From: Bdellovibrionales bacterium RIFOXYC1_FULL_37_79
GTDB taxonomy: Bacteria > Bdellovibrionota > Bacteriovoracia > Bacteriovoracales > Bacteriovoracaceae
Assembly: GCA_001770015.1 (NCBI GenBank)
Contig: MEQB01000073.1
Location: forward strand, 1-64,000
DNA length: 64,000 nucleotides
Direction of reading: 5' to 3'
Part shown: positions 8,800 through 55,961 of the stretch, piece after piece
Position numbering within the stretch: position 1 is the stretch's first letter
Layout of the letters: the number at the start of each line of letters is the position of its first letter
Notes under the pieces: model-generated
Seen by the model: the letters and a program-made list of their open reading frames with translations, nothing else
The model's database searches: none
What the model was told of the DNA's origin: nothing
Made by a program: the position numbers and the translations under genes

Positions 8800-10092
8800 A
8801 TGGGAAGAAAATCTAAAACGATTAAATTAAACGTTTATATTCAAGGCAATCTAATAGGTATTTATGTTAAAGCTCCCGACGGTTCAACTTCATTTACATA
8901 CGATCCCACATGGGTCGATCATGGTTTTGCTATTTCTCAATCTCTTCCTCTTGTAACCGTTCCTTATAAAGGTGATAGTGCAAAAATATATTTTGAAAAC
9001 TTGTTACCAGATTTGAAAGAAGCCAGAGAGTTGATTGCAACAAAGATTCATGCAAATAGTTCTGATCATTTTGATCTTTTGGATGCTATAGGACATGACT
9101 GCGTTGGAGCACTTCTATTTTCAAAAATTTTAAGTGCAAATGAGGCCAAAGATCAACCGCCTAGAGGAGAAATCTTATCAGATAAAAAAATAGGCAACAT
9201 AATTCGAAATTTGAAATCTTATCCTCTTGGCATGAACAATGATCAAGCGGACTTTCGAATTTCTCTTGCGGGAGTTCAAGAAAAAACAGCTCTTCTATTT
9301 TTGAAAAATAAGTGGCAAAGACCTATCGGAACCACTCCCACAACTCACATTCTAAAGCCTGCCATGAAATTTGAAACATTTGGACTTGATATGCGCTCAA
9401 GCGTTCATAATGAGTATTTTTGTATGAAGCTATGTAAAGAATTTAATTTAAAAGTTGCAGAGGTTGAAATCAAGTCTTTTGATGGTGAATTAGCTCTAGT
9501 AGTTAAAAGATTTGATCGCTATGAAAAAGATGGAATTATTTATCGAAGACCCATAGAGGATATGTGCCAAGCTTTGGGTTATTTTTCCAATAAAAAATAT
9601 CAATCCGATCAAGGCCCGTGTGTCAGTGAATTGATCTCTATACTCTCCACCAGTGTTAATAGAGAAAAAGACTTGGAGACATTTTTTAAATCTCTGGTTG
9701 TTTTTTTTGTAATGGGAGCAATTGATGGACATGCCAAGAACTACTCAATTGAATATGTCAAAGAGGGACATCGATTAACACCACTTTATGACATTCTCTC
9801 AATTTATCCCGCTTTAACAGACAAAGAAATTAAGCTTGGCAAATATAAGATGGCCTTATCTGTCGGCACAAGTCCACATTACAAAGTTGACAAAATTTTT
9901 CGAAGACATTTTCTCGAGACAGCAAAAACTTGTCAAATCTCTAAAGAGAAGGCAAACGAAATCATAGATGATATTCTTTTTAAAATTGATCAAGAAGTAT
10001 GGAACAAAATTAAATGTTCCAAATTATTTGATGAGTCTACTCGGAATCGAATTATTTCAGGAATTAAAATTTTATCAAAAAAACTTTTATAG
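8800..10092 (+). CDS. hipA: HipA serine/threonine kinase toxin
   Basis: The protein has 430 residues, close to E. coli HipA (440). HipA kinases phosphorylate glutamyl-tRNA synthetase and induce dormancy. Visible landmarks are the N-terminal couple_hipA subdomain, the activation-loop motif ISLAGVQEKTALL with the autophosphorylated serine at S155, the catalytic loop GAIDGHAKNYSI with D309, and the metal-binding motif LTPLYDILS with D331. All key residues are present, so the toxin looks intact. It lies 12 bases after hipB in the normal antitoxin-first order, behind a hip-type operator. The neighbourhood of gene scars fits acquisition by transfer. Confidence 0.93.
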   Translation: MGRKSKTIKLNVYIQGNLIGIYVKAPDGSTSFTYDPTWVDHGFAISQSLPLVTVPYKGDSAKIYFENLLPDLKEARELIATKIHANSSDHFDLLDAIGHDCVGALLFSKILSANEAKDQPPRGEILSDKKIGNIIRNLKSYPLGMNNDQADFRISLAGVQEKTALLFLKNKWQRPIGTTPTTHILKPAMKFETFGLDMRSSVHNEYFCMKLCKEFNLKVAEVEIKSFDGELALVVKRFDRYEKDGIIYRRPIEDMCQALGYFSNKKYQSDQGPCVSELISILSTSVNREKDLETFFKSLVVFFVMGAIDGHAKNYSIEYVKEGHRLTPLYDILSIYPALTDKEIKLGKYKMALSVGTSPHYKVDKIFRRHFLETAKTCQISKEKANEIIDDILFKIDQEVWNKIKCSKLFDESTRNRIISGIKILSKKLL

Positions 10093-22321: not shown

Positions 22322-22498
22322 TCTAGCAAGTGAATTTCCAATTGAGTGGGATTAATTTTGCGAGGAATCAAAGACAAATTGACACCGATTTTTTTGCCCC
22401 TTGCAAAGCAGTAATCGTTTTAAATATCACTAGATTACAATTTGTTTTGGCAATAGTTTTGCAAACTGGTTTTTTGAATAAAACAAAAAGGAGTGCGT

Positions 22499-23068
22499 AT
22501 GAAAATTTTCGATAAGCTGCTTTATTTAATTTGTACATTTATTTTAATAACGAATATTTCAATTGCAGATGATCTTAATTTAAAAATTATTGATGATTAT
22601 TTGAATACCATAAAAAATGTTGAATGCCATTTGAATGCAGATTGCGATTTAAATCAAAGGTGCATTAATGGAATATGTAGAGAAAATGATAGAATCTGTT
22701 CGTCCAGCGGAGATTGTCCCGGAAGTGAAAGATGTATAAGCGGAAGATGCACCGGCGGAGTTGGTGGAGTTTGTTCAACCAGTGGAGATTGTCCCGGAAG
22801 TGAAAGATGTATAAGCGGAAGATGCACCGGCGGAGTTGGTGGAGTTTGTTCAACCAGTGGAGATTGTCCCGGCAGTGAAAGATGTATAAGTGGAAGATGC
22901 ACCGGCGGAGTCAGTGGAGTTTGTTCAACCAGTGGAGATTGTCCCGGCAGTGAAAGATGTATAAGTGGAAGATGCACCGGCGGAGTTGGTGGGGTTTGTT
23001 CAACCAGTGGAGATTGTCCCGGCAGTGAAAGATGTATAAGTGGAAGATGTACCCAACGAGAAAATTAA
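22499..23068 (+). CDS. Exported Cys-rich tandem-repeat protein
   Basis: AAAGGAG lies five bases before the ATG at 22499; the protein has 189 residues. After the signal peptide (MKIFDKLLYLICTFILITNISIA) and a short linker comes a degenerate unit, CHLNADCDLNQRCINGICRE, then five near-identical 25-residue units of the form CSTSGDCPGSERCISGRC plus TGGVGGV. Each unit has four cysteines spaced C-x5-C-x5-C-x4-C, resembling small disulfide knots of extracellular Cys-rich repeats. It is very probably secreted or surface-exposed, perhaps adhesive or toxin-like. Copy number is likely variable because the DNA repeats are almost exact. A strong terminator follows. Confidence 0.88.
   Translation: MKIFDKLLYLICTFILITNISIADDLNLKIIDDYLNTIKNVECHLNADCDLNQRCINGICRENDRICSSSGDCPGSERCISGRCTGGVGGVCSTSGDCPGSERCISGRCTGGVGGVCSTSGDCPGSERCISGRCTGGVSGVCSTSGDCPGSERCISGRCTGGVGGVCSTSGDCPGSERCISGRCTQREN
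22697..23053 (+). repeat. 75-bp in-frame tandem repeat, nearly five units
   Basis: Units begin at 22697, 22772, 22847, 22922 and 22997; the last is cut at 23053. The period is exactly 75 bp (25 codons). The first two units share GGAAGTGAAAG and AGCGGAAGA, the last three GGCAGTGAAAG and AGTGGAAGA, so the array grew by duplicating blocks, not by independent drift. Confidence 0.95.
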
Positions 23069-48714: not shown

Positions 48715-49050
48715 TTATCTGATCTGCCGTAAAATTTTATCTAACAAGCGACTCATGGATGTTTTTTCGCTCATATCCATCCACTGGGTGGTGCTGATAT
48801 AGAATGAGAGTTCATCAGAGGGTGCTTCGTTGGTATATTTAAGAGTTAGAATTTTTTTATCAAAGGATATCATTTTATGTAATTCATCCATCACCTTGAA
48901 ACTTTTACTCGCATGCTTAGTAAAAATTAATAAATGAATATCGGCCTTTGACAAGTCCTGACATTCCACATTCTCTCTCTCAAACATTTTTTTTATTTGC
49001 TGGGCATACTCTCTATCCATTTCGTCATAACAAATATAAATACTCTTCAA
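48715..49050 (-). CDS. Small TIR-like protein
   Basis: The start is TTG 49050, six bases after GGAGGAG, overlapping the upstream stop (TTGA); the protein then has 111 residues. It follows the TIR fold: first strand SIYICYDEMDREYAQQI, helix A, a strand ending ADIHLLIFTKHASKS, helix with VMDEL whose Glu falls where TIR NADases have the catalytic Glu, then KKILTLKY and TTQWMDM. The part between strands B and C (the BB loop) is very short, so it is a minimal or divergent TIR. It might bind or cleave NAD, or only mediate contacts. It is the last gene of an overlapping three-gene operon. Confidence 0.6.
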   Translation of the reverse strand: MKSIYICYDEMDREYAQQIKKMFERENVECQDLSKADIHLLIFTKHASKSFKVMDELHKMISFDKKILTLKYTNEAPSDELSFYISTTQWMDMSEKTSMSRLLDKILRQIR

Positions 49051-49556
49051 AAAACTCTCCTCCAAATGGTTTTGACCAAACTGCTGAGTCGATCCATCAA
49101 AATGTGGCACAGATCAGCTAAAAACATCCCCGAATAAAACCACACTAAATATTTATAAAGGGGTACATTGTAATCAAACTTTTGGATAAGATGCCAAAGA
49201 AAGTTTCCATAGTTACTTAAAGAAATGGAAACATACCCCAACTTATAAAATATAAAAATCAAAATTCCAAACCCAACAATCCCATAAACCAGCCTGGTCA
49301 AGGTACCCAGCAAAAAACTGTGGGAAAGCCCTCTATGTTTAAACAAGATGGAATAGGGATAAAGCATAAACTGTAAAAGGCCAGTTCTTTTCTTCGGGGC
49401 AACGTCAGTATCTGGCGAAAAAAGGAGCGTAGAAAAAAGCCAGCCGGCCAGATAAAAAAAGACCAAGGCACCATTCAGGGTAAAACCAAGCAAAGCACCC
49501 GCTGATATCATGCCCACTAAAAGATTGAGACGATCATGATGTTTGCCACTACTCAC
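49047..49556 (-). CDS. DUF2227 (YdjM-like) metal-binding membrane protein
   Basis: The 169-residue protein starts with GTG 49556, overlapping the previous gene by eight bases. Histidines and acids of the family are present: SSGKHHDRLN at the start, LFSPDTDVAPKKR, PYSILFKHRGLSHSFLLGTL, and LADLCHILMD. Four membrane segments separate them. The HD...SPD.D...HRGLSH pattern matches DUF2227, a relative of the YdjM hydrolase-like family. The pattern suggests a membrane-embedded metal site, but the function is unknown. It is flanked by a deacetylase-like and a TIR-like gene in one overlapping operon. Confidence 0.85.
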   Translation of the reverse strand: MSSGKHHDRLNLLVGMISAGALLGFTLNGALVFFYLAGWLFSTLLFSPDTDVAPKKRTGLLQFMLYPYSILFKHRGLSHSFLLGTLTRLVYGIVGFGILIFIFYKLGYVSISLSNYGNFLWHLIQKFDYNVPLYKYLVWFYSGMFLADLCHILMDRLSSLVKTIWRRVF

Positions 49557-50514
49557 ACGACCTCTGCTTTAAAAGCCAATCCAGAAACTGGATATAAACC
49601 TCTCCTACTTTTTTTCCATATCCTCCTCCCATCACAAAAAGCATAGGAATATGCTTCCCTTGAAGGAACCGGTAAATCATCTGGTCCCTGAAAAACATTT
49701 GAGATTTTGTCAATTTGATCCCGGCAGTGCCTGGTAATTCATCATATTCATAAGGGTCAGCACCATTTACCACCACGGCCAGGTCAGGCCCTAATGGGTC
49801 AAGCTTAGCCAATTGAAGCAAACCGGCTTCCAGTTTTTCTTGATAATTTTCTTCCTCACGGAAATCCACTGGAATATCAACATTCGAAGGAATCATTTCC
49901 GGATCATTATTATTTTTACCCAGAAGCGGCCACCCCTTTTTCATATGCATACTTAAAGTGAAAAAACGAGCATCCTGATAACTCATTTCGCTGGTGCCAT
50001 CCCCCTTATGGGCATCGACATCAATGATCCAGACTTTTTTTATCAAATTTTCTGCCATCAGCTTTCTGGCCCCAATCACGAGATCATTGATCAGGCAAAA
50101 ACCTCTGCCAGCAAAACTCATCGCATGGTGCATGCCACCACCTAAAAAATAACAAAACCCCTGTTGTAATGCCAATTGCATCCCTTGATAAGTATAAAAA
50201 GCTTCCCGTAAAATCAAATCCCTTAATTGTCTAAACTCTAAGGTGGTCGGCTTATCCCCATACTCATCCAGCTCAAAACAAATACCCATGATCTCAACTA
50301 AATTATCTCCCAAAAGCGCTTCCACATAATCCTTGGTATGGGCCAATAATAAATCATCCTTGGTAAGCCCCTCCCCTCTAAAGTTGCCTTTATAAAAAAT
50401 ATTATCTGAGTAATGAGATGTTAAATGATCAAGTATTACATCCATACGTTCATCCAGCGGAATATGAATGCCAAATTTGACCAGCTTAACCTCAAAATCT
50501 TTCCTCAGGATCAT
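49549..50514 (-). CDS. Histone-deacetylase-like zinc hydrolase
   Basis: The 321-residue protein belongs to the arginase/deacetylase superfamily. GGGMHHAM gives the tandem His (129, 130), IIDVDAHKGDGT gives zinc ligands D167 and H169, GADPYEYD gives D253, and GGGY gives the transition-state Tyr near 299. All catalytic positions are present. Bacterial relatives deacetylate acetylpolyamines, acetoin-system enzymes or other acyl-lysines, so the substrate cannot be told. It heads the operon with the DUF2227 and TIR-like genes. The ATG is preceded by a weak ribosome-binding region. Confidence 0.9.
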   Translation of the reverse strand: MILRKDFEVKLVKFGIHIPLDERMDVILDHLTSHYSDNIFYKGNFRGEGLTKDDLLLAHTKDYVEALLGDNLVEIMGICFELDEYGDKPTTLEFRQLRDLILREAFYTYQGMQLALQQGFCYFLGGGMHHAMSFAGRGFCLINDLVIGARKLMAENLIKKVWIIDVDAHKGDGTSEMSYQDARFFTLSMHMKKGWPLLGKNNNDPEMIPSNVDIPVDFREEENYQEKLEAGLLQLAKLDPLGPDLAVVVNGADPYEYDELPGTAGIKLTKSQMFFRDQMIYRFLQGKHIPMLFVMGGGYGKKVGEVYIQFLDWLLKQRSCE

Positions 50515-50558
50515 TTTACCGACCTCGATAATCTTGTGGCCATTATATAATGGAGATT

Positions 50559-51626
50559 ATGAAAACCCAATTATTTTATATCATAGTCCTAGCGGGATTA
50601 ATTTGCACTTTTACCCATGCCGCCTTTCAAGATCGCAGTGAAATAAAAAAATATTCCCTATACCGAGATCGTCTCTACACTGACAAATTGCTGACCAAGG
50701 AAGTTTATAAAAATTTTTTTGAATTTGACCTGTTTTATTCCAAAGGTGTTAAAACCCTCATAAGCGAAGTTAAAGAAGCCATGGATAGCTCCAATAACCC
50801 CCTGTTAAAACAACTGAACGTCATGGAGGTTTTAAGCAAGAACATCAACACCGAAAAGTTGGTGGATATCGGAGTAACCTTCGGCACACCTCTTCCCTAC
50901 ATCAAAATAAATGAGCATCGCTTACTGCCCGGTTTTTTTGCTGACTTCAATGCCGGCACCCTGGTATCCATCGATAACCGGGTTGATCCAACTGATCCCA
51001 GGGCCAATATTTATTTAAAAAAAGATATCAAATACGGCCTGAATTCCAGATATAAAACCAATCAAAATAATGACGCCTTTGATTTTTCAATCTATAAATT
51101 ATCACGCTCTGATCTAGAAACCTCCAAAACGGCTTCCCAAATTATTTCCGAGGATAGTTTCATCGACCTGGATTCCTTAACCAAAGATGAGAAAGTAATC
51201 GCTGCCGATTTAAAATACATGCAAACTTTAGGTAACAGCGCTTATCTTTATGAAATAAGAGAATTCAAACTGCACACTTTATCCGGTAGCCAGGAATCAA
51301 GCTATGGCACCAAACCATACCTCCGCTTTGAATTTGATCGATTATTTAATGAAACTTACGGGCTGAGTTTTTTTATTGGCGAACATTTCAGGCAACGCTA
51401 TAAATTTCAAAACGGTCTCTATCTCGGTATCCGCATGCGTTCGTTGGAAAAGCCACCCATTGCTTTTATTTTTAAATTTGATGCAGATTTTTTAACCTTC
51501 ATACCTGAACTCAAAACCAAATGGTTGATTGCTAACTACAAATTAATCATCCCCCATAGTAATCCTCAAGACGAAATCTGGGCATCCACCATCCACTCCA
51601 TTTCACTCAACATCCCATTTCCATAA
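50559..51626 (+). CDS. Exported protein, possible outer-membrane barrel
   Basis: The ATG at 50559 with GGAG four bases upstream gives 355 residues; ATG 50550 overlaps that site. The signal peptide is MKTQLFYIIVLAGLICTFTHA. The second half has repeated aromatic, alternating strands (YLRFEFDRLFNETYGLSFFI, GLYLGIRMRSL, WLIANYKLII) and the chain ends SISLNIPFP, so a beta-barrel or beta-sandwich is plausible. There are no mature cysteines. No family is recognised. Its 3' end overlaps the glycosyltransferase gene by 20 bases on the opposite strand. Confidence 0.72.
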   Translation: MKTQLFYIIVLAGLICTFTHAAFQDRSEIKKYSLYRDRLYTDKLLTKEVYKNFFEFDLFYSKGVKTLISEVKEAMDSSNNPLLKQLNVMEVLSKNINTEKLVDIGVTFGTPLPYIKINEHRLLPGFFADFNAGTLVSIDNRVDPTDPRANIYLKKDIKYGLNSRYKTNQNNDAFDFSIYKLSRSDLETSKTASQIISEDSFIDLDSLTKDEKVIAADLKYMQTLGNSAYLYEIREFKLHTLSGSQESSYGTKPYLRFEFDRLFNETYGLSFFIGEHFRQRYKFQNGLYLGIRMRSLEKPPIAFIFKFDADFLTFIPELKTKWLIANYKLIIPHSNPQDEIWASTIHSISLNIPFP

Positions 51627-52482
51627 GTAAGGCCCGGGCGTGATCACTAATGGACTTGATTTCTGCCAGATTTTTTAAATTGTGATGCTTGAGATATCCC
51701 TTGATCAAAATCTTACTCTTACTGATTATTTCCTTTAACGTGGCCTGCTTATCATCAGCATTTAAATGTCTCATTTTAAGCATTTTATACATGGCCAAAA
51801 CACGATAATAATCCATGGAGTGATATTGGTGCGACAACTGGTCTGCATGTCCGCCATATTTTTTTATAAGCGGGTCCACAATAAATCCCACCTCATAAAG
51901 TGAAGTGATTTTTAACCACAAGTAATAATCCTCGCACACCACAAACTCCTCATCGAAGTTCCCCATCTGCCCGAGCATCTCCCGTTCCACCACAGCTGCT
52001 GACGGACTGATAAGACAAAGCGGCAAGCACAACTTATAAATATTGCCTCCAAATTTTTGATGGATTTTTTTGGGATTGACACGAACGCCGTTTCTAATCC
52101 AGATTTCTTCCCCATGTACAATTTTCAGATCAGGATTTGCATCAATAAGTTTTTTTTGCTTGTAGAGTTTGTCTGGCAGCCATTCATCGTCCGAATCCAA
52201 AAAGGCCAGCCATTTTCCTTCTGAAATGTGGATTCCAACATTTCTCGCAGCACTGACTCCCTGATTAATGATTTTTTGATAAAATATTTTTTCTTTCAAA
52301 GGATGATGTTGTCGATATTGGTGCACCAATTCCTGAGTCATATCCGTGGAACCATCATCTATGATCCATAAATCAAAATCAGGGTAACTCTGATTCATCA
52401 CCGAATCGATGGCCCTTTTCAGAACTTTTTCCCTGTTAAAGGTTGGAATAATAACCGAAAAAAAATTAGAATCATTCATCAT
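51607..52482 (-). CDS. Family 2 glycosyltransferase
   Basis: The ~291-residue protein starts at ATG 52482 inside the end of the aldo/keto reductase gene. FSVIIPTFNREKVLKRAIDS, LWIIDDGSTD, GVSAARNVGI and the metal-binding AFLDSDDEWLP (DxD) are diagnostic of GT-A family 2 enzymes. It should transfer a sugar from a nucleotide-sugar to an envelope polysaccharide or glycoprotein acceptor. No membrane segment is seen, so it is cytoplasmic or peripheral. Acceptor unknown. Translation is coupled to the upstream reductase by an 11-base overlap. Confidence 0.92.
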   Translation of the reverse strand: MMNDSNFFSVIIPTFNREKVLKRAIDSVMNQSYPDFDLWIIDDGSTDMTQELVHQYRQHHPLKEKIFYQKIINQGVSAARNVGIHISEGKWLAFLDSDDEWLPDKLYKQKKLIDANPDLKIVHGEEIWIRNGVRVNPKKIHQKFGGNIYKLCLPLCLISPSAAVVEREMLGQMGNFDEEFVVCEDYYLWLKITSLYEVGFIVDPLIKKYGGHADQLSHQYHSMDYYRVLAMYKMLKMRHLNADDKQATLKEIISKSKILIKGYLKHHNLKNLAEIKSISDHARALLMEMGC

Positions 52483-53410
52483 CAATTATACTTATGGCCT
52501 TTAAGATGGCCGCCACAGGCACTAATTTTTGGGTGGAGGAAATCGCCTCGTCCAGTTGCTGCTGGCTTCTGGCGCCCACAATCACCTGATCAACTTCATC
52601 ATACATAAGATTATGACCAATGGCCAAATCAATCCCTGACAGTTGATATTCATCCCGCACCGTTTTTAATTTTTCATATTTTTGAAATTTAAATTCCAGA
52701 TTGGATTTCTTCCACCAAGGGGCATGGCCTCTAAGATCACTTTCATCATACTTTCTTCCCGCATGCGCCCGACCGGTCAAAATCCCCTTATCCAAAGTCC
52801 CAAAGGACATAAAACTGCGCTCATTTTGTTTGATCTCTTGGAACAGTTCATGAATCACCTTTCGATTAAACAAATTAAGTTCGGATTGAAGGACTTCGAT
52901 TTTCTCAACTTCAGAAGCCTTCTTGATTTCCTCCAAGGTGGTATTGCAAAGACCTATATGATTAATTTTACCTTCTCGTTTGGCCTTGGATAAGACCTCC
53001 ATGGTAAAACGAACATCCACGTTTTTATCCGGCCAATGAATGAGGTAAAGGTCCACATACGAACTGGACAGATCTTTTAAGGTCGTTTCGAGCATGCGAG
53101 TTACAATCTGGGGATGATTGCTCATATTAACTCTTAAATTGTCGTGCCAACTGACACCACATTTGGAGACAATAAACACCTGGTCCCGGTTATGCCTAAA
53201 AGCTCTTCCAATTCTTTGTTCGCTCGCTCTAAAACCATAAATCGGTGCCGTGTCATAGATTTTTATGCCCCGATCAAAAGCATATTTTAATAAAGCGATA
53301 GATTGATCCTCCGATATATCGCCAAAACCATAGCCACGCCCTTCCCCGCTAATGGAGGCACCTCCAAAAGCTAATTTGATGGGTGAAATTTCCTTCAGTA
53401 GTGACGTCAT
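52472..53410 (-). CDS. Aldo/keto reductase
   Basis: The 312-residue cytoplasmic enzyme has the full tetrad: D53 and Y58 in IYDTAPIYG, K83 in IVSKCG, and H125 in YLIHWPD. SFGTLDKGILTGR and a late VIVGARSQQQLDEAI (cofactor-binding helix) complete the TIM-barrel family pattern. It would reduce aldehydes or sugars with NADPH. AAAGGT lies before the ATG. It overlaps the glycosyltransferase, which hints at a role in sugar modification. Confidence 0.93.
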   Translation of the reverse strand: MTSLLKEISPIKLAFGGASISGEGRGYGFGDISEDQSIALLKYAFDRGIKIYDTAPIYGFRASEQRIGRAFRHNRDQVFIVSKCGVSWHDNLRVNMSNHPQIVTRMLETTLKDLSSSYVDLYLIHWPDKNVDVRFTMEVLSKAKREGKINHIGLCNTTLEEIKKASEVEKIEVLQSELNLFNRKVIHELFQEIKQNERSFMSFGTLDKGILTGRAHAGRKYDESDLRGHAPWWKKSNLEFKFQKYEKLKTVRDEYQLSGIDLAIGHNLMYDEVDQVIVGARSQQQLDEAISSTQKLVPVAAILKAISIIDDE

Positions 53411-54161: not shown

Positions 54162-55016
54162 ATGTTTTTCATGAACCAAACTGTTTTTAATCGCTGGGCA
54201 AACGAAACCCGCCAAATCAGAGAAAACATTATAAAAATGATTCATCAATGTGCAAGTGGACACCCTGGTGGAAGTCTCTCCTGTGTGGAAATCCTCTATG
54301 CCCTATTTGCTAAAGACGGCGTCATGCAACACTCTCCTGATAAACTAAATTCTTTTGAGAGAGATCGTTTTATTCTGTCCAAGGGGCATGGTGTCCCTGC
54401 CTTATACGCCATCTTACATGCAGTTGGTTACGATATTACCGATAGTGAATTGATGACACTTCGACATCTTGGCTCACGCTTGCAGGGACATCCTGACCGG
54501 GTCAGATTGCCTTACATTGAAGCTTCCACTGGCTCTTTGGGCCAGGGTGCCTCCATAGCTCAAGGAATCGCCATGAGCTATAAACTGGATAAAAACCCTC
54601 ATCGAGTTTATGCCCTGATTGGAGACGGCGAAATGCAAGAAGGTCAAATCTGGGAAGTGGCTTCCTCCGCCGTCCACCACAAACTGGGAAATTTTACATT
54701 AATTTTGGATTACAACAAGGCCCAGATTGATGGAACCGTTAAAGAAGTATTGAACATGGATCCACCTGAAAAAAGGTGGGAAGCATTTGGATGGAACACC
54801 CTGGTTATCAACGGACATAAATATGATGAGATTGTCAAAGCATTGCAAACAACTCACCCAACAAAACCAACCATGATAATAGCTCACACCATTAAAGGGA
54901 AAGGGGTTTCTTTCATGGAAAACAACATTGTCGGCTGGCACGGCTCAGCTCCTAACGATGAACAGTGTAAACAGGCGGTACAAGAAATTCAAAATAACCA
55001 ATCCATTGGATTATAG
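54162..55016 (+). CDS. Transketolase, N-terminal subunit
   Basis: The 284-residue subunit carries the thiamin-diphosphate-binding half of transketolase: CASGHPGGSLSCVEIL, SKGHGVPALYAIL, STGSLGQGASIAQGIA, the ThDP motif ALIGDGEMQEGQIWE...NKAQIDG, and KGKGVSFMEN. It works with the next gene to make one enzyme, moving two-carbon units in the pentose phosphate pathway. The split form is common outside the enteric bacteria. ATG 54162 sits four bases after AAGGA; ATG 54171 is an equal alternative. Twelve bases separate it from the second subunit. Confidence 0.94.
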   Translation: MFFMNQTVFNRWANETRQIRENIIKMIHQCASGHPGGSLSCVEILYALFAKDGVMQHSPDKLNSFERDRFILSKGHGVPALYAILHAVGYDITDSELMTLRHLGSRLQGHPDRVRLPYIEASTGSLGQGASIAQGIAMSYKLDKNPHRVYALIGDGEMQEGQIWEVASSAVHHKLGNFTLILDYNKAQIDGTVKEVLNMDPPEKRWEAFGWNTLVINGHKYDEIVKALQTTHPTKPTMIIAHTIKGKGVSFMENNIVGWHGSAPNDEQCKQAVQEIQNNQSIGL

Positions 55017-55028
55017 GAGATATTCAGT

Positions 55029-55961
55029 ATGGGAAAAACAGCAAGCAGAAAAGCTTTTGGTGAAGCCTTGGCCGAATTGGGTGATAAATATAAGAATGTA
55101 GTTTGTTTGGATGCAGATTTATCCAAATCAACCATGAGTATCCTATTCAAAAATAAATTCCCCGATCGTTTTTTTGAAATGGGCATTCAAGAAGCCAATA
55201 TGATCGGAGCCGCCACCGGCATGAGCTTTTCAGGAAAGATTCCTTTTATTTGCAGCTTTGCCGCATTTTTAACGGGAAGATTTGATCAAATCAGGATTTC
55301 GATTGCTTACGCCAATGCCAATGTAAAACTTATAGGTACCCACTGTGGAGTGGGGATTGGTGAAGACGGTTACTCACAAATGGGGCTTGAGGATTTATCC
55401 ATCATGAGAACCCTACCTAATATGGTGGTCTTGCAACCTGCAGATGCCAAAGAAACCAAGGAAATGGTGGAATGGGCCATCAATCATGTAGGTCCAGTTT
55501 ACTTAAGACTAACCCGGCAAGGGCTTCAAGATATGAACATGGATAAGTTTGAACGCCCAGGCATTTTTCCTGAAGTCAAAAAAGGTCAGAAAGTCGCTTT
55601 CATGGCCTGCGGCGGGGTCTTGGAATACGCCCTAGAAGCCGCTCATAACATTTCTAAAGAGGGAAAAATCGATCCAGCAGTATTCAACGCCAATTGTCTC
55701 AACCCTATTGATAATGCCTTTATGAGTATGCTGGCCAATACTTTTGATGAATTTATTGTTTTTGAAGACCACACCATCAATGGAGGCACCGGCGGCATGA
55801 TTGCAGAATGGATGTCAGAAAATGCCAATCGCCCCAAAAGAGTTCGACGCTATGGAGTGAAAAACATTTATGGCGAATCAGGAACACCTGAAGATTTATA
55901 CAAATTTCATGGCTTCACCGCACCTGATATTGAAAAATTTGCGAAAAAATATTTGACCTGA
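55029..55961 (+). CDS. Transketolase, C-terminal subunit
   Basis: The 310-residue subunit has the pyrimidine-binding and C-terminal domains: VVCLDADLSKST, FFEMGIQEANMIGAATGMSF (the catalytic Glu in IQEAN), GRFDQIRISIAYANANVKL, THCGVGIGEDG, VYLRLTRQG, and the C-terminal VFEDHTINGGTGGMI. AGGAGA lies upstream of the ATG. With the preceding gene it forms one active transketolase. It is followed ten bases later by the L28 promoter. Confidence 0.94.
   Translation: MGKTASRKAFGEALAELGDKYKNVVCLDADLSKSTMSILFKNKFPDRFFEMGIQEANMIGAATGMSFSGKIPFICSFAAFLTGRFDQIRISIAYANANVKLIGTHCGVGIGEDGYSQMGLEDLSIMRTLPNMVVLQPADAKETKEMVEWAINHVGPVYLRLTRQGLQDMNMDKFERPGIFPEVKKGQKVAFMACGGVLEYALEAAHNISKEGKIDPAVFNANCLNPIDNAFMSMLANTFDEFIVFEDHTINGGTGGMIAEWMSENANRPKRVRRYGVKNIYGESGTPEDLYKFHGFTAPDIEKFAKKYLT

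What the first reader, a model, noticed from the sequence alone, without database searches (positions are those of the whole stretch)
48715..50514. Overlapping operon: deacetylase-like enzyme, DUF2227 membrane protein, minimal TIR
Overlaps of 8 and 4 bases lock the three genes together. The deacetylase has all zinc and catalytic residues, and the TIR-like protein keeps a Glu at the NADase position but lacks most of the BB-loop region. TIR proteins next to a second enzyme often mark signalling or anti-phage systems; this combination is one I do not know as described.
Basis: partly seen in the sequence, partly recalled or inferred. Interest (0 to 1): 0.58.

Follow-up and report, generated by a model that had tools for sequence, protein, structure and literature searches.

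The report
Deacylase operon with stripped-down TIR protein
In a relative of predatory bacteria, a gene for an enzyme resembling animal HDAC11 is locked together with genes for a membrane metal-binding protein and a shrunken immune-type (TIR) protein that seems to have lost its NAD-cutting loop, which hints at an immune domain re-used as a non-enzymatic partner.

Summary
The trio is real. HDAC-fold enzyme, DUF2227 membrane protein and TIR-like protein overlap by 8 and 4 nt (GTG and TTG starts); the overlaps and a GAGGAGAG ribosome site recur in a sister species. The first two genes belong to an old Bacteriovoracaceae neighbourhood (HDAC upstream of DUF2227 in 15 of 21, often beside LolA-like or MMPL genes). 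The TIR was added in one lineage (3 of 129 genomes, 2 genera). The enzyme is no typical deacetylase: it carries GGGMHH and GGGY, the open-pocket signature of class IV (HDAC11-like) deacylases, and its nearest solved relative is Leptospira HDAC11. The small protein models as a TIR and keeps the NADase-position Glu, but 18 residues (BB loop, helix B) are deleted in both species, while selection keeps it intact (pN/pS 0.33). In a sister genus the locus encodes a full TIR-membrane protein with a degenerate BB motif. I read the TIR as a captured, NADase-dead adaptor for a membrane-linked deacylase. An anti-phage role is unlikely: no PADLOC hit, syntenic locus, no plasmid or phage copy. Function is inferred, not shown.

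The parts
49549..50514 (-). HDAC-fold Zn-dependent acyl hydrolase, class IV (HDAC11-like) by motif and nearest relatives; predicted deacylase
   Evidence: PF00850 143.3 bits; profile of 14 orthologs best matches PDB 9gz5/9rjd liHDAC11/B, E 6.5e-43; catalytic residues invariant
50125..50142 (-). GGGMHH motif (residues 125-130): open foot-pocket signature plus the two catalytic His
   Evidence: invariant in 14 of 14 orthologs; GGGXHH rule from PMC11532494
49618..49629 (-). GGGY motif with catalytic Tyr299
   Evidence: G297 G298 Y299 invariant; motif role from PMC11532494
49549..49556 (-). 8-nt overlap of HDAC end and DUF2227 start (GTG)
   Evidence: same in G127
49047..49556 (-). DUF2227 family putative metal-binding membrane protein, 169 aa, all-helical
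   Evidence: PF09988 94.9 bits; H7, D49, D51, H74, H79, H151, D155 invariant in 29 aligned sequences; AF2 model pLDDT 81
49047..49050 (-). 4-nt TTGA overlap of DUF2227 stop and TIR start
   Evidence: same in G127
49055..49063 (-). Shine-Dalgarno-like GGAGGAGAG in front of the TTG start
   Evidence: GAGGAGAG in the same place in G127
48715..49050 (-). 111-aa minimal TIR-like protein without BB loop and helix B, no TM segment
   Evidence: TIR_2 27.4 bits; AF2 pLDDT 71.9, pTM 0.67; Foldseek/VIA matches to TIRs; hydropathy
48958..48963 (-). C30-Q31 junction where about 18 residues (BB loop and helix B) are missing
   Evidence: alignments of 9 and 23 TIRs; same gap in G127
48883..48885 (-). Glu56, at the NADase catalytic position on helix C
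   Evidence: invariant in the alignments
51607..52485 (-). family 2 glycosyltransferase, part of the conserved upstream block (context)
   Evidence: PF00535; cluster c3 in 9 of 21 neighbourhoods
52472..53410 (-). aldo/keto reductase, part of the conserved upstream block (context)
   Evidence: PF00248; cluster c6 in 8 of 21 neighbourhoods

Best explanation
The operon makes a membrane-associated deacylase module. A cytosolic class IV (HDAC11-like) zinc deacylase works with the multi-pass metal-binding DUF2227 protein in envelope or lipid-linked metabolism. In this lineage a copy of a TIR-membrane protein was captured downstream. It then lost its membrane and C-terminal part and its BB loop, and is kept as a small NADase-dead adaptor that binds or regulates the deacylase/DUF2227 pair through its remaining TIR surfaces. 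Shown here: gene coupling, synteny, catalytic motifs, loop loss, predicted TIR fold, purifying selection. Inferred: lipid-linked substrate, physical complex, lack of NADase activity, adaptor role.
For: Overlaps and ribosome site are conserved in G127. HDAC is upstream of DUF2227 in 15 of 21 neighbourhoods and in 13 of 17 Bacteriovoracaceae loci of a separate genome scan. LolA-like (9 of 21) and MMPL (4 of 21) genes lie between or next to them. GGGMHH and catalytic residues are invariant in 14 of 14; nearest solved proteins are class IV enzymes; GGGXHH marks enzymes able to remove longer acyl chains (PMC11532494, passages). TIR fold: VIA Z 13.3 to 4w8g, 13.2 to Cat1 and SPARTA. BB loop deleted in both species and degenerate in G064. 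BB loop needed for NADase in SfSTING and SpbK (PMC9402430, PMC12847820, passages). The locus TIRs form one clade, support 0.975. TIR pN/pS 0.33, about the same as HDAC 0.32; neutral survival of the ORF in 24 of 5000 simulations.
Against: The TIR is present in only 3 of 129 genomes, so it is not needed by the deacylase/DUF2227 pair in general. LolA and its barrel-like partner lie elsewhere in the three trio genomes, so the lipid link is weakest exactly where the TIR is. DUF2227 function is unknown and its model matched no solved fold. Two loci (L105, L106) have DUF2227 without HDAC. Leptospira HDAC11, the nearest relative, prefers acetyl to octanoyl chains, so long-chain activity is not implied. 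The TIR model rests on two sequences. dS is near saturation.
Confidence: 0.42

Rival explanations
1. Anti-phage or NAD-signalling system: the TIR makes or senses an NAD-derived signal on infection and the HDAC enzyme or membrane protein is the effector.
For: TIR fold and Glu kept; a membrane protein and an enzyme in one operon, as in known TIR systems (recalled). Unlinked TIR paralogs sit beside TPR-S/cyclase genes of conflict-system type.
Against: PADLOC 0 of 4 proteins; BB loop missing, and this loop is required in SfSTING and SpbK; syntenic locus next to transketolase, AKR and GT2 genes; no plasmid or phage match.
Confidence: 0.12
2. The TIR is a passenger: a fading remnant of a longer TIR-membrane gene that happens to sit downstream and has no present role.
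For: Stepwise loss of BB motif, TM and C-terminal part from G064 to the window genus; absent from most relatives.
Against: ORF, start codon, ribosome site and overlap conserved between species with dS about 1.9; pN/pS 0.33, about equal to HDAC; neutral survival 24 of 5000.
Confidence: 0.2
3. The stripped TIR is still an enzyme, but of the related deoxynucleotide N-hydrolase (DNPH1/Rcl-like) type, using Glu56 on a nucleotide other than NAD.
For: VIA-align places DNPH1/Rcl at Z 12.4-12.9, tied with TIRs, over 99-104 residues; Glu56 kept in the window and G127 copies.
Against: Sequence relatives are TIRs; shared fold shows no function; no DNPH1 substrate-site residues were tested.
Confidence: 0.1
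4. The HDAC enzyme acts on a small molecule (sugar, polyamine or acylated metabolite) made by the neighbouring AKR/GT2 block, and the operon belongs to surface-glycan synthesis.
For: AKR lies upstream of HDAC in 15 of 30 HDAC loci; GT2 and AKR beside DUF2227 in L105/L106; clade A class IV enzymes showed no peptide activity.
Against: No RPPXHH/EGGY polyamine-deacetylase signature; nearest relative is a clade B protein deacylase.
Confidence: 0.16

Closest known systems
Leptospira interrogans HDAC11/B (PDB 9rjd/9gz5) and Vibrio HdaH (9gky/9gkv), class IV / cluster 5 deacylases
   Same: Best two matches of the HDAC family profile (150.9 and 127.2 bits); a GG-X-HH and a GGY motif
   Different: Gatekeeper is Met in all 14 orthologs (Phe/Tyr in clade B, Thr/Ser in clade A per PMC13325672); HKG where the two relatives read HQG and HHG after the zinc His; coupled to DUF2227; PMC13325672 states that conserved linkage of class IV HDACs with fatty-acid synthesis genes is lacking
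DUF2227 (PF09988), uncharacterized metal-binding protein
   Same: 94.9 bits, cut-off 25; conserved His/Asp set
   Different: In the scan linked to an HDAC only in Bacteriovoracaceae; the 16 of 33 loci outside that group have neither HDAC nor TIR within the 10 kb or less fetched on each side
TIR-TM proteins paired with TPR-S / (RyR) / nucleotide-cyclase proteins in the same bacterial order
   Same: Same TIR_2 subfamily with the WMDA-type end; closest relatives by sequence
   Different: Those keep a CWxAPR BB motif, C-terminal region and a partner gene, and most a TM segment; the operon TIR has none of these
TIR NADases of SPARTA, Cat1, SfSTING and SpbK
   Same: Fold (Z about 13 to SPARTA and Cat1) and Glu on helix C
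   Different: BB loop and helix B deleted here

Membership tests
Class IV (HDAC11-like) deacylases | zinc ligands and catalytic His-His/Tyr | tested here: met
   H129, H130, D165, D167, H169, D253, Y299 invariant in 14 of 14
Class IV (HDAC11-like) deacylases | GGGXHH replacing RPPXHH | tested here: met
   GGGMHH in 14 of 14; rule from PMC11532494
Class IV (HDAC11-like) deacylases | nearest solved relatives are class IV | tested here: met
   9gz5/9rjd and 9gkv rank first and second of 138 matched sequences; no full phylogeny was built
Class IV clade B | bulky aromatic gatekeeper, HPFD motif, Glu94 | tested here: inconclusive
   gatekeeper is Met; loop reads IPL-D in the window with near-invariant P19; Glu94 position not alignable with certainty
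Class IV (HDAC11-like) deacylases | acyl-lysine hydrolysis | not testable with these tools
   needs purified enzyme
Acetylpolyamine / cluster 1 deacetylases | RPPXHH and EGGY motifs | tested here: not met
   GGGMHH and GGGY instead (motifs)
DUF2227 (PF09988) | Pfam score over the gathering cut-off | tested here: met
   94.9 vs 25 bits
TIR_2 (PF13676) | Pfam score over the gathering cut-off | tested here: not met
   27.4 vs 28 bits; G127 copy 23.6
TIR fold | alpha/beta TIR arrangement | tested here: met
   predicted model only: Foldseek E 3e-4, prob 1.00; VIA Z 13.3; elements bA aA bB bC aC bD aD aE, no aB
TIR NADases | BB loop present | tested here: not met
   18-residue gap in both species
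TIR NADases | catalytic Glu on helix C | tested here: met
   Glu56
Known TIR anti-phage systems | match to a PADLOC protein model | tested here: not met
   0 of 4 proteins; the library is of 2023

The most novel reading that the evidence does not exclude
A bacterial immune-type TIR domain has been stripped of its NADase loop and domesticated as a regulatory or targeting subunit of a membrane-linked HDAC11-like deacylase. That would be a case in bacteria of a TIR working purely as an adaptor in cell-envelope physiology, with class IV HDACs tied by conserved synteny to lipid and envelope genes.
Probability: 0.3. Interest if true: 0.66.

Novelty: new variant of a known kind. Interest (0 to 1): 0.47.

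Why it matters
Class IV HDACs are the least understood HDACs, and PMC13325672 says conserved genetic linkage with fatty-acid synthesis genes is lacking. This family gives a repeated bacterial gene neighbourhood (DUF2227, LolA-like, MMPL) that points to envelope or lipid roles and could be tested in culturable Halobacteriovorax-type relatives. The TIR gives three evolutionary stages (normal, degenerate BB motif, BB loop deleted) for asking how a TIR loses NADase activity yet stays under selection.

Tried and rejected
Anti-phage reading: PADLOC 0 hits, no TIR match in 72,556 plasmid and 50,697 phage records. NCBIfam gave no HDAC or TIR family over its cut-off. Deeper TIR alignment for modelling: a TIR alignment scan of viral contigs found no relative, and three DNA-pattern scans found 0, 14 and 1 stretches that on reading were chance or stop-filled frames, none a TIR. 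So the TIR model used 2 sequences. DUF2227 fold search gave no match with E under 3.5, and no solved sequence relative was found, so its enzymatic role stays open; YdjM similarity is sub-threshold (16.4 vs 29 bits). P0001 against PDB sequences gave only chance hits. DUF2227 itself does occur on a few plasmids (6 of 72,556 records, under 60% identity; those listed are Deinococcus, Oceanithermus and Pontibacillus). Long-chain activity of the HDAC was considered and lowered, because liHDAC11/B prefers acetyl to octanoyl. I considered that HDAC, LolA and MMPL form the operon here; rejected for this genome, because LolA and its partner lie on another contig. In the VIA table families that are not listed are not excluded.

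Full report
WHAT IS THERE. Three minus-strand genes overlap: an HDAC-fold enzyme at 49549-50514, a DUF2227 protein at 49047-49556 and a TIR-like protein at 48715-49050. The 8-nt and 4-nt overlaps are right once the GTG and TTG starts are used. The TTG is credible: GGAGGAGAG stands four bases before it, and the sister genome G127 has the same TTG, GAGGAGAG and both overlaps. Pfam gives Hist_deacetyl 143 bits, DUF2227 94.9 bits and TIR_2 27.4 bits against a cut-off of 28.

WHERE IT LIES. The window is contig C73 of a 4.36 Mb, 96% complete genome. Named relatives with the same genes are mostly Bacteriovoracaceae/Halobacteriovorax MAGs.

HOW OLD ARE THE PARTS. In the order (129 genomes held, all one family), DUF2227 was found in 25 genomes, one of them a frame-broken fragment; in the phylum in 26 of 368. 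I fetched 20 neighbourhoods and clustered their genes with a 15-kb stretch of the window: HDAC orthologs are in 15 of 21, LolA-like and a barrel-like protein (my reading of its sequence; no Pfam match) in 9 each, MMPL in 4, TIR in 3. HDAC and DUF2227 touch directly only in the three TIR-bearing genomes (G000, G127, G064); elsewhere one to four genes lie between. An independent scan of 84,980 species genomes returned 33 DUF2227 loci. HDAC is upstream on the same strand in 13 of the 17 Bacteriovoracaceae-group loci; of the other four, two end at contig edges (L099, L107) and two carry DUF2227 directly behind GT2 without HDAC (L105, L106). The remaining 16 loci have neither HDAC nor TIR in the DNA fetched, up to 10 kb each side. 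That scan's single peptide pattern missed G064, so it undercounts. Of the 30 HDAC loci fetched (from the best matches), 20 have the 5'-nucleotidase gene beside HDAC, 15 have AKR upstream, 3 have the TIR. LolA and its partner exist in G000, G127 and G064 too, but on other contigs. So HDAC is a conserved family gene (a match in 99 of 129 genomes, paralogs included), DUF2227 is an old neighbour, and the TIR is a late addition.

THE ENZYME. [quoted passage not shown] The motif GGGMHH is invariant and the Tyr motif is GGGY. According to PMC11532494 (passages), robust deacetylases have RPPXHH and those able to remove longer chains have GGGXHH. PMC13325672 (abstract and passages) splits class IV into clades A and B and reports that basal clade B enzymes, Leptospira's included, prefer acetyl to octanoyl; it places Vibrio HdaH in clade A. 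The Met gatekeeper fits neither clade's norm. I therefore predict a class IV acyl hydrolase of unknown chain preference, not a classical deacetylase.

DUF2227. Seven His/Asp positions are invariant in 29 aligned sequences, and the model is helical (pLDDT 81). Neither sequence nor fold finds a solved relative. No paper in the held library mentions DUF2227.

THE TIR. AlphaFold2 (2 sequences, pLDDT 71.9, pTM 0.67; the five models range from 38 to 72) gives a TIR order of elements without helix B. Foldseek and VIA-align put TIRs on top (E 3e-4; Z 13.3 at 2.6 A over 105 residues), with DNPH1/Rcl nearly tied. Alignment with 8 and 22 other TIRs shows a gap of 18 residues over the BB loop and helix B, shared with G127. 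G064's copy keeps the length but reads CFVKPSV where its nearest paralogs read CWMAPRD/N or close to it; Glu56 is kept (the tree set left out G047 and G057, which the script's search did not return, and lists the G012 protein twice). The three locus TIRs form one clade with support 0.975. Paralogs of the normal kind are 424-575 aa, most with one predicted TM segment, and in 8 genomes sit next to a TPR-S/cyclase-type gene. G064's locus copy is 514 aa with one TM segment and a C-terminal DUF4160 match. BB-loop replacement abolished NADase in SfSTING (PMC9402430, passages), and a BB point change did so in SpbK (PMC12847820, passages), so loss of NADase here is likely but untested.

SELECTION. Between G000 and G127: TIR pN 0.231, pS 0.694 (dS 1.94); pN/pS DUF2227 0.25, HDAC 0.32, seven neighbours 0.03-0.33. 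dS is near saturation, so ratios are rough. In 5000 neutral simulations with 45% of sites changed, 24 kept the frame open.

MECHANISM. Best reading: a membrane-linked deacylase module with a captured, catalytically dead TIR as adaptor (0.42). The passenger reading (0.2) is the main danger. Defence (0.12) is disfavoured by the missing BB loop, the syntenic locus, PADLOC and the absence from phages and plasmids; PADLOC is of 2023 and none of these is proof.

NOVELTY. Searches gave no paper whose listing describes this trio or an HDAC-DUF2227 pair; the library lacks most subscription papers. PMC7159879 was read in passages only. The enzyme is a new member of a known kind; the BB-less TIR and its operon are a new variant.

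Noticed in passing
L090:5552-8769 (G000:C12), L086, L088, L089, L091, L151, L152, L153: TIR-TM genes next to a gene with TPR-S, MAP3K_TRAF_bd-type and (in some) RyR or guanylate-cyclase domains in 8 genomes: a probable cyclic-nucleotide/TIR conflict system in Bacteriovoracaceae.
   Followed up: partly
L067:9268-10812: 514-aa TIR-TM protein ending in a DUF4160 domain (31.6 bits, cut-off 23), at the same operon place as the window's minimal TIR.
   Followed up: partly
window 50515-50549: Only 35 nt separate the HDAC start from the divergent gene at 50550-51626 (358 aa, no Pfam family over cut-off), a neighbour seen in 5 of 21 neighbourhoods; both promoters must be squeezed or lie inside genes.
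   Followed up: no
window 22493-23068: Small, probably secreted Cys-rich protein with about five near-identical repeats of a CSTSGDCPGSERCISGRCTG unit.
   Followed up: no
window 8800-10092: ORF that looks HipA-like (recalled, not tested).
   Followed up: no
L068, L069 and L109-L111 upstream of DUF2227: In genus g46 an HD_5-domain protein sits between HDAC and DUF2227.
   Followed up: no
window 54162-55961: Split transketolase (N and C halves as two genes), syntenic in three genomes near the trio.
   Followed up: no
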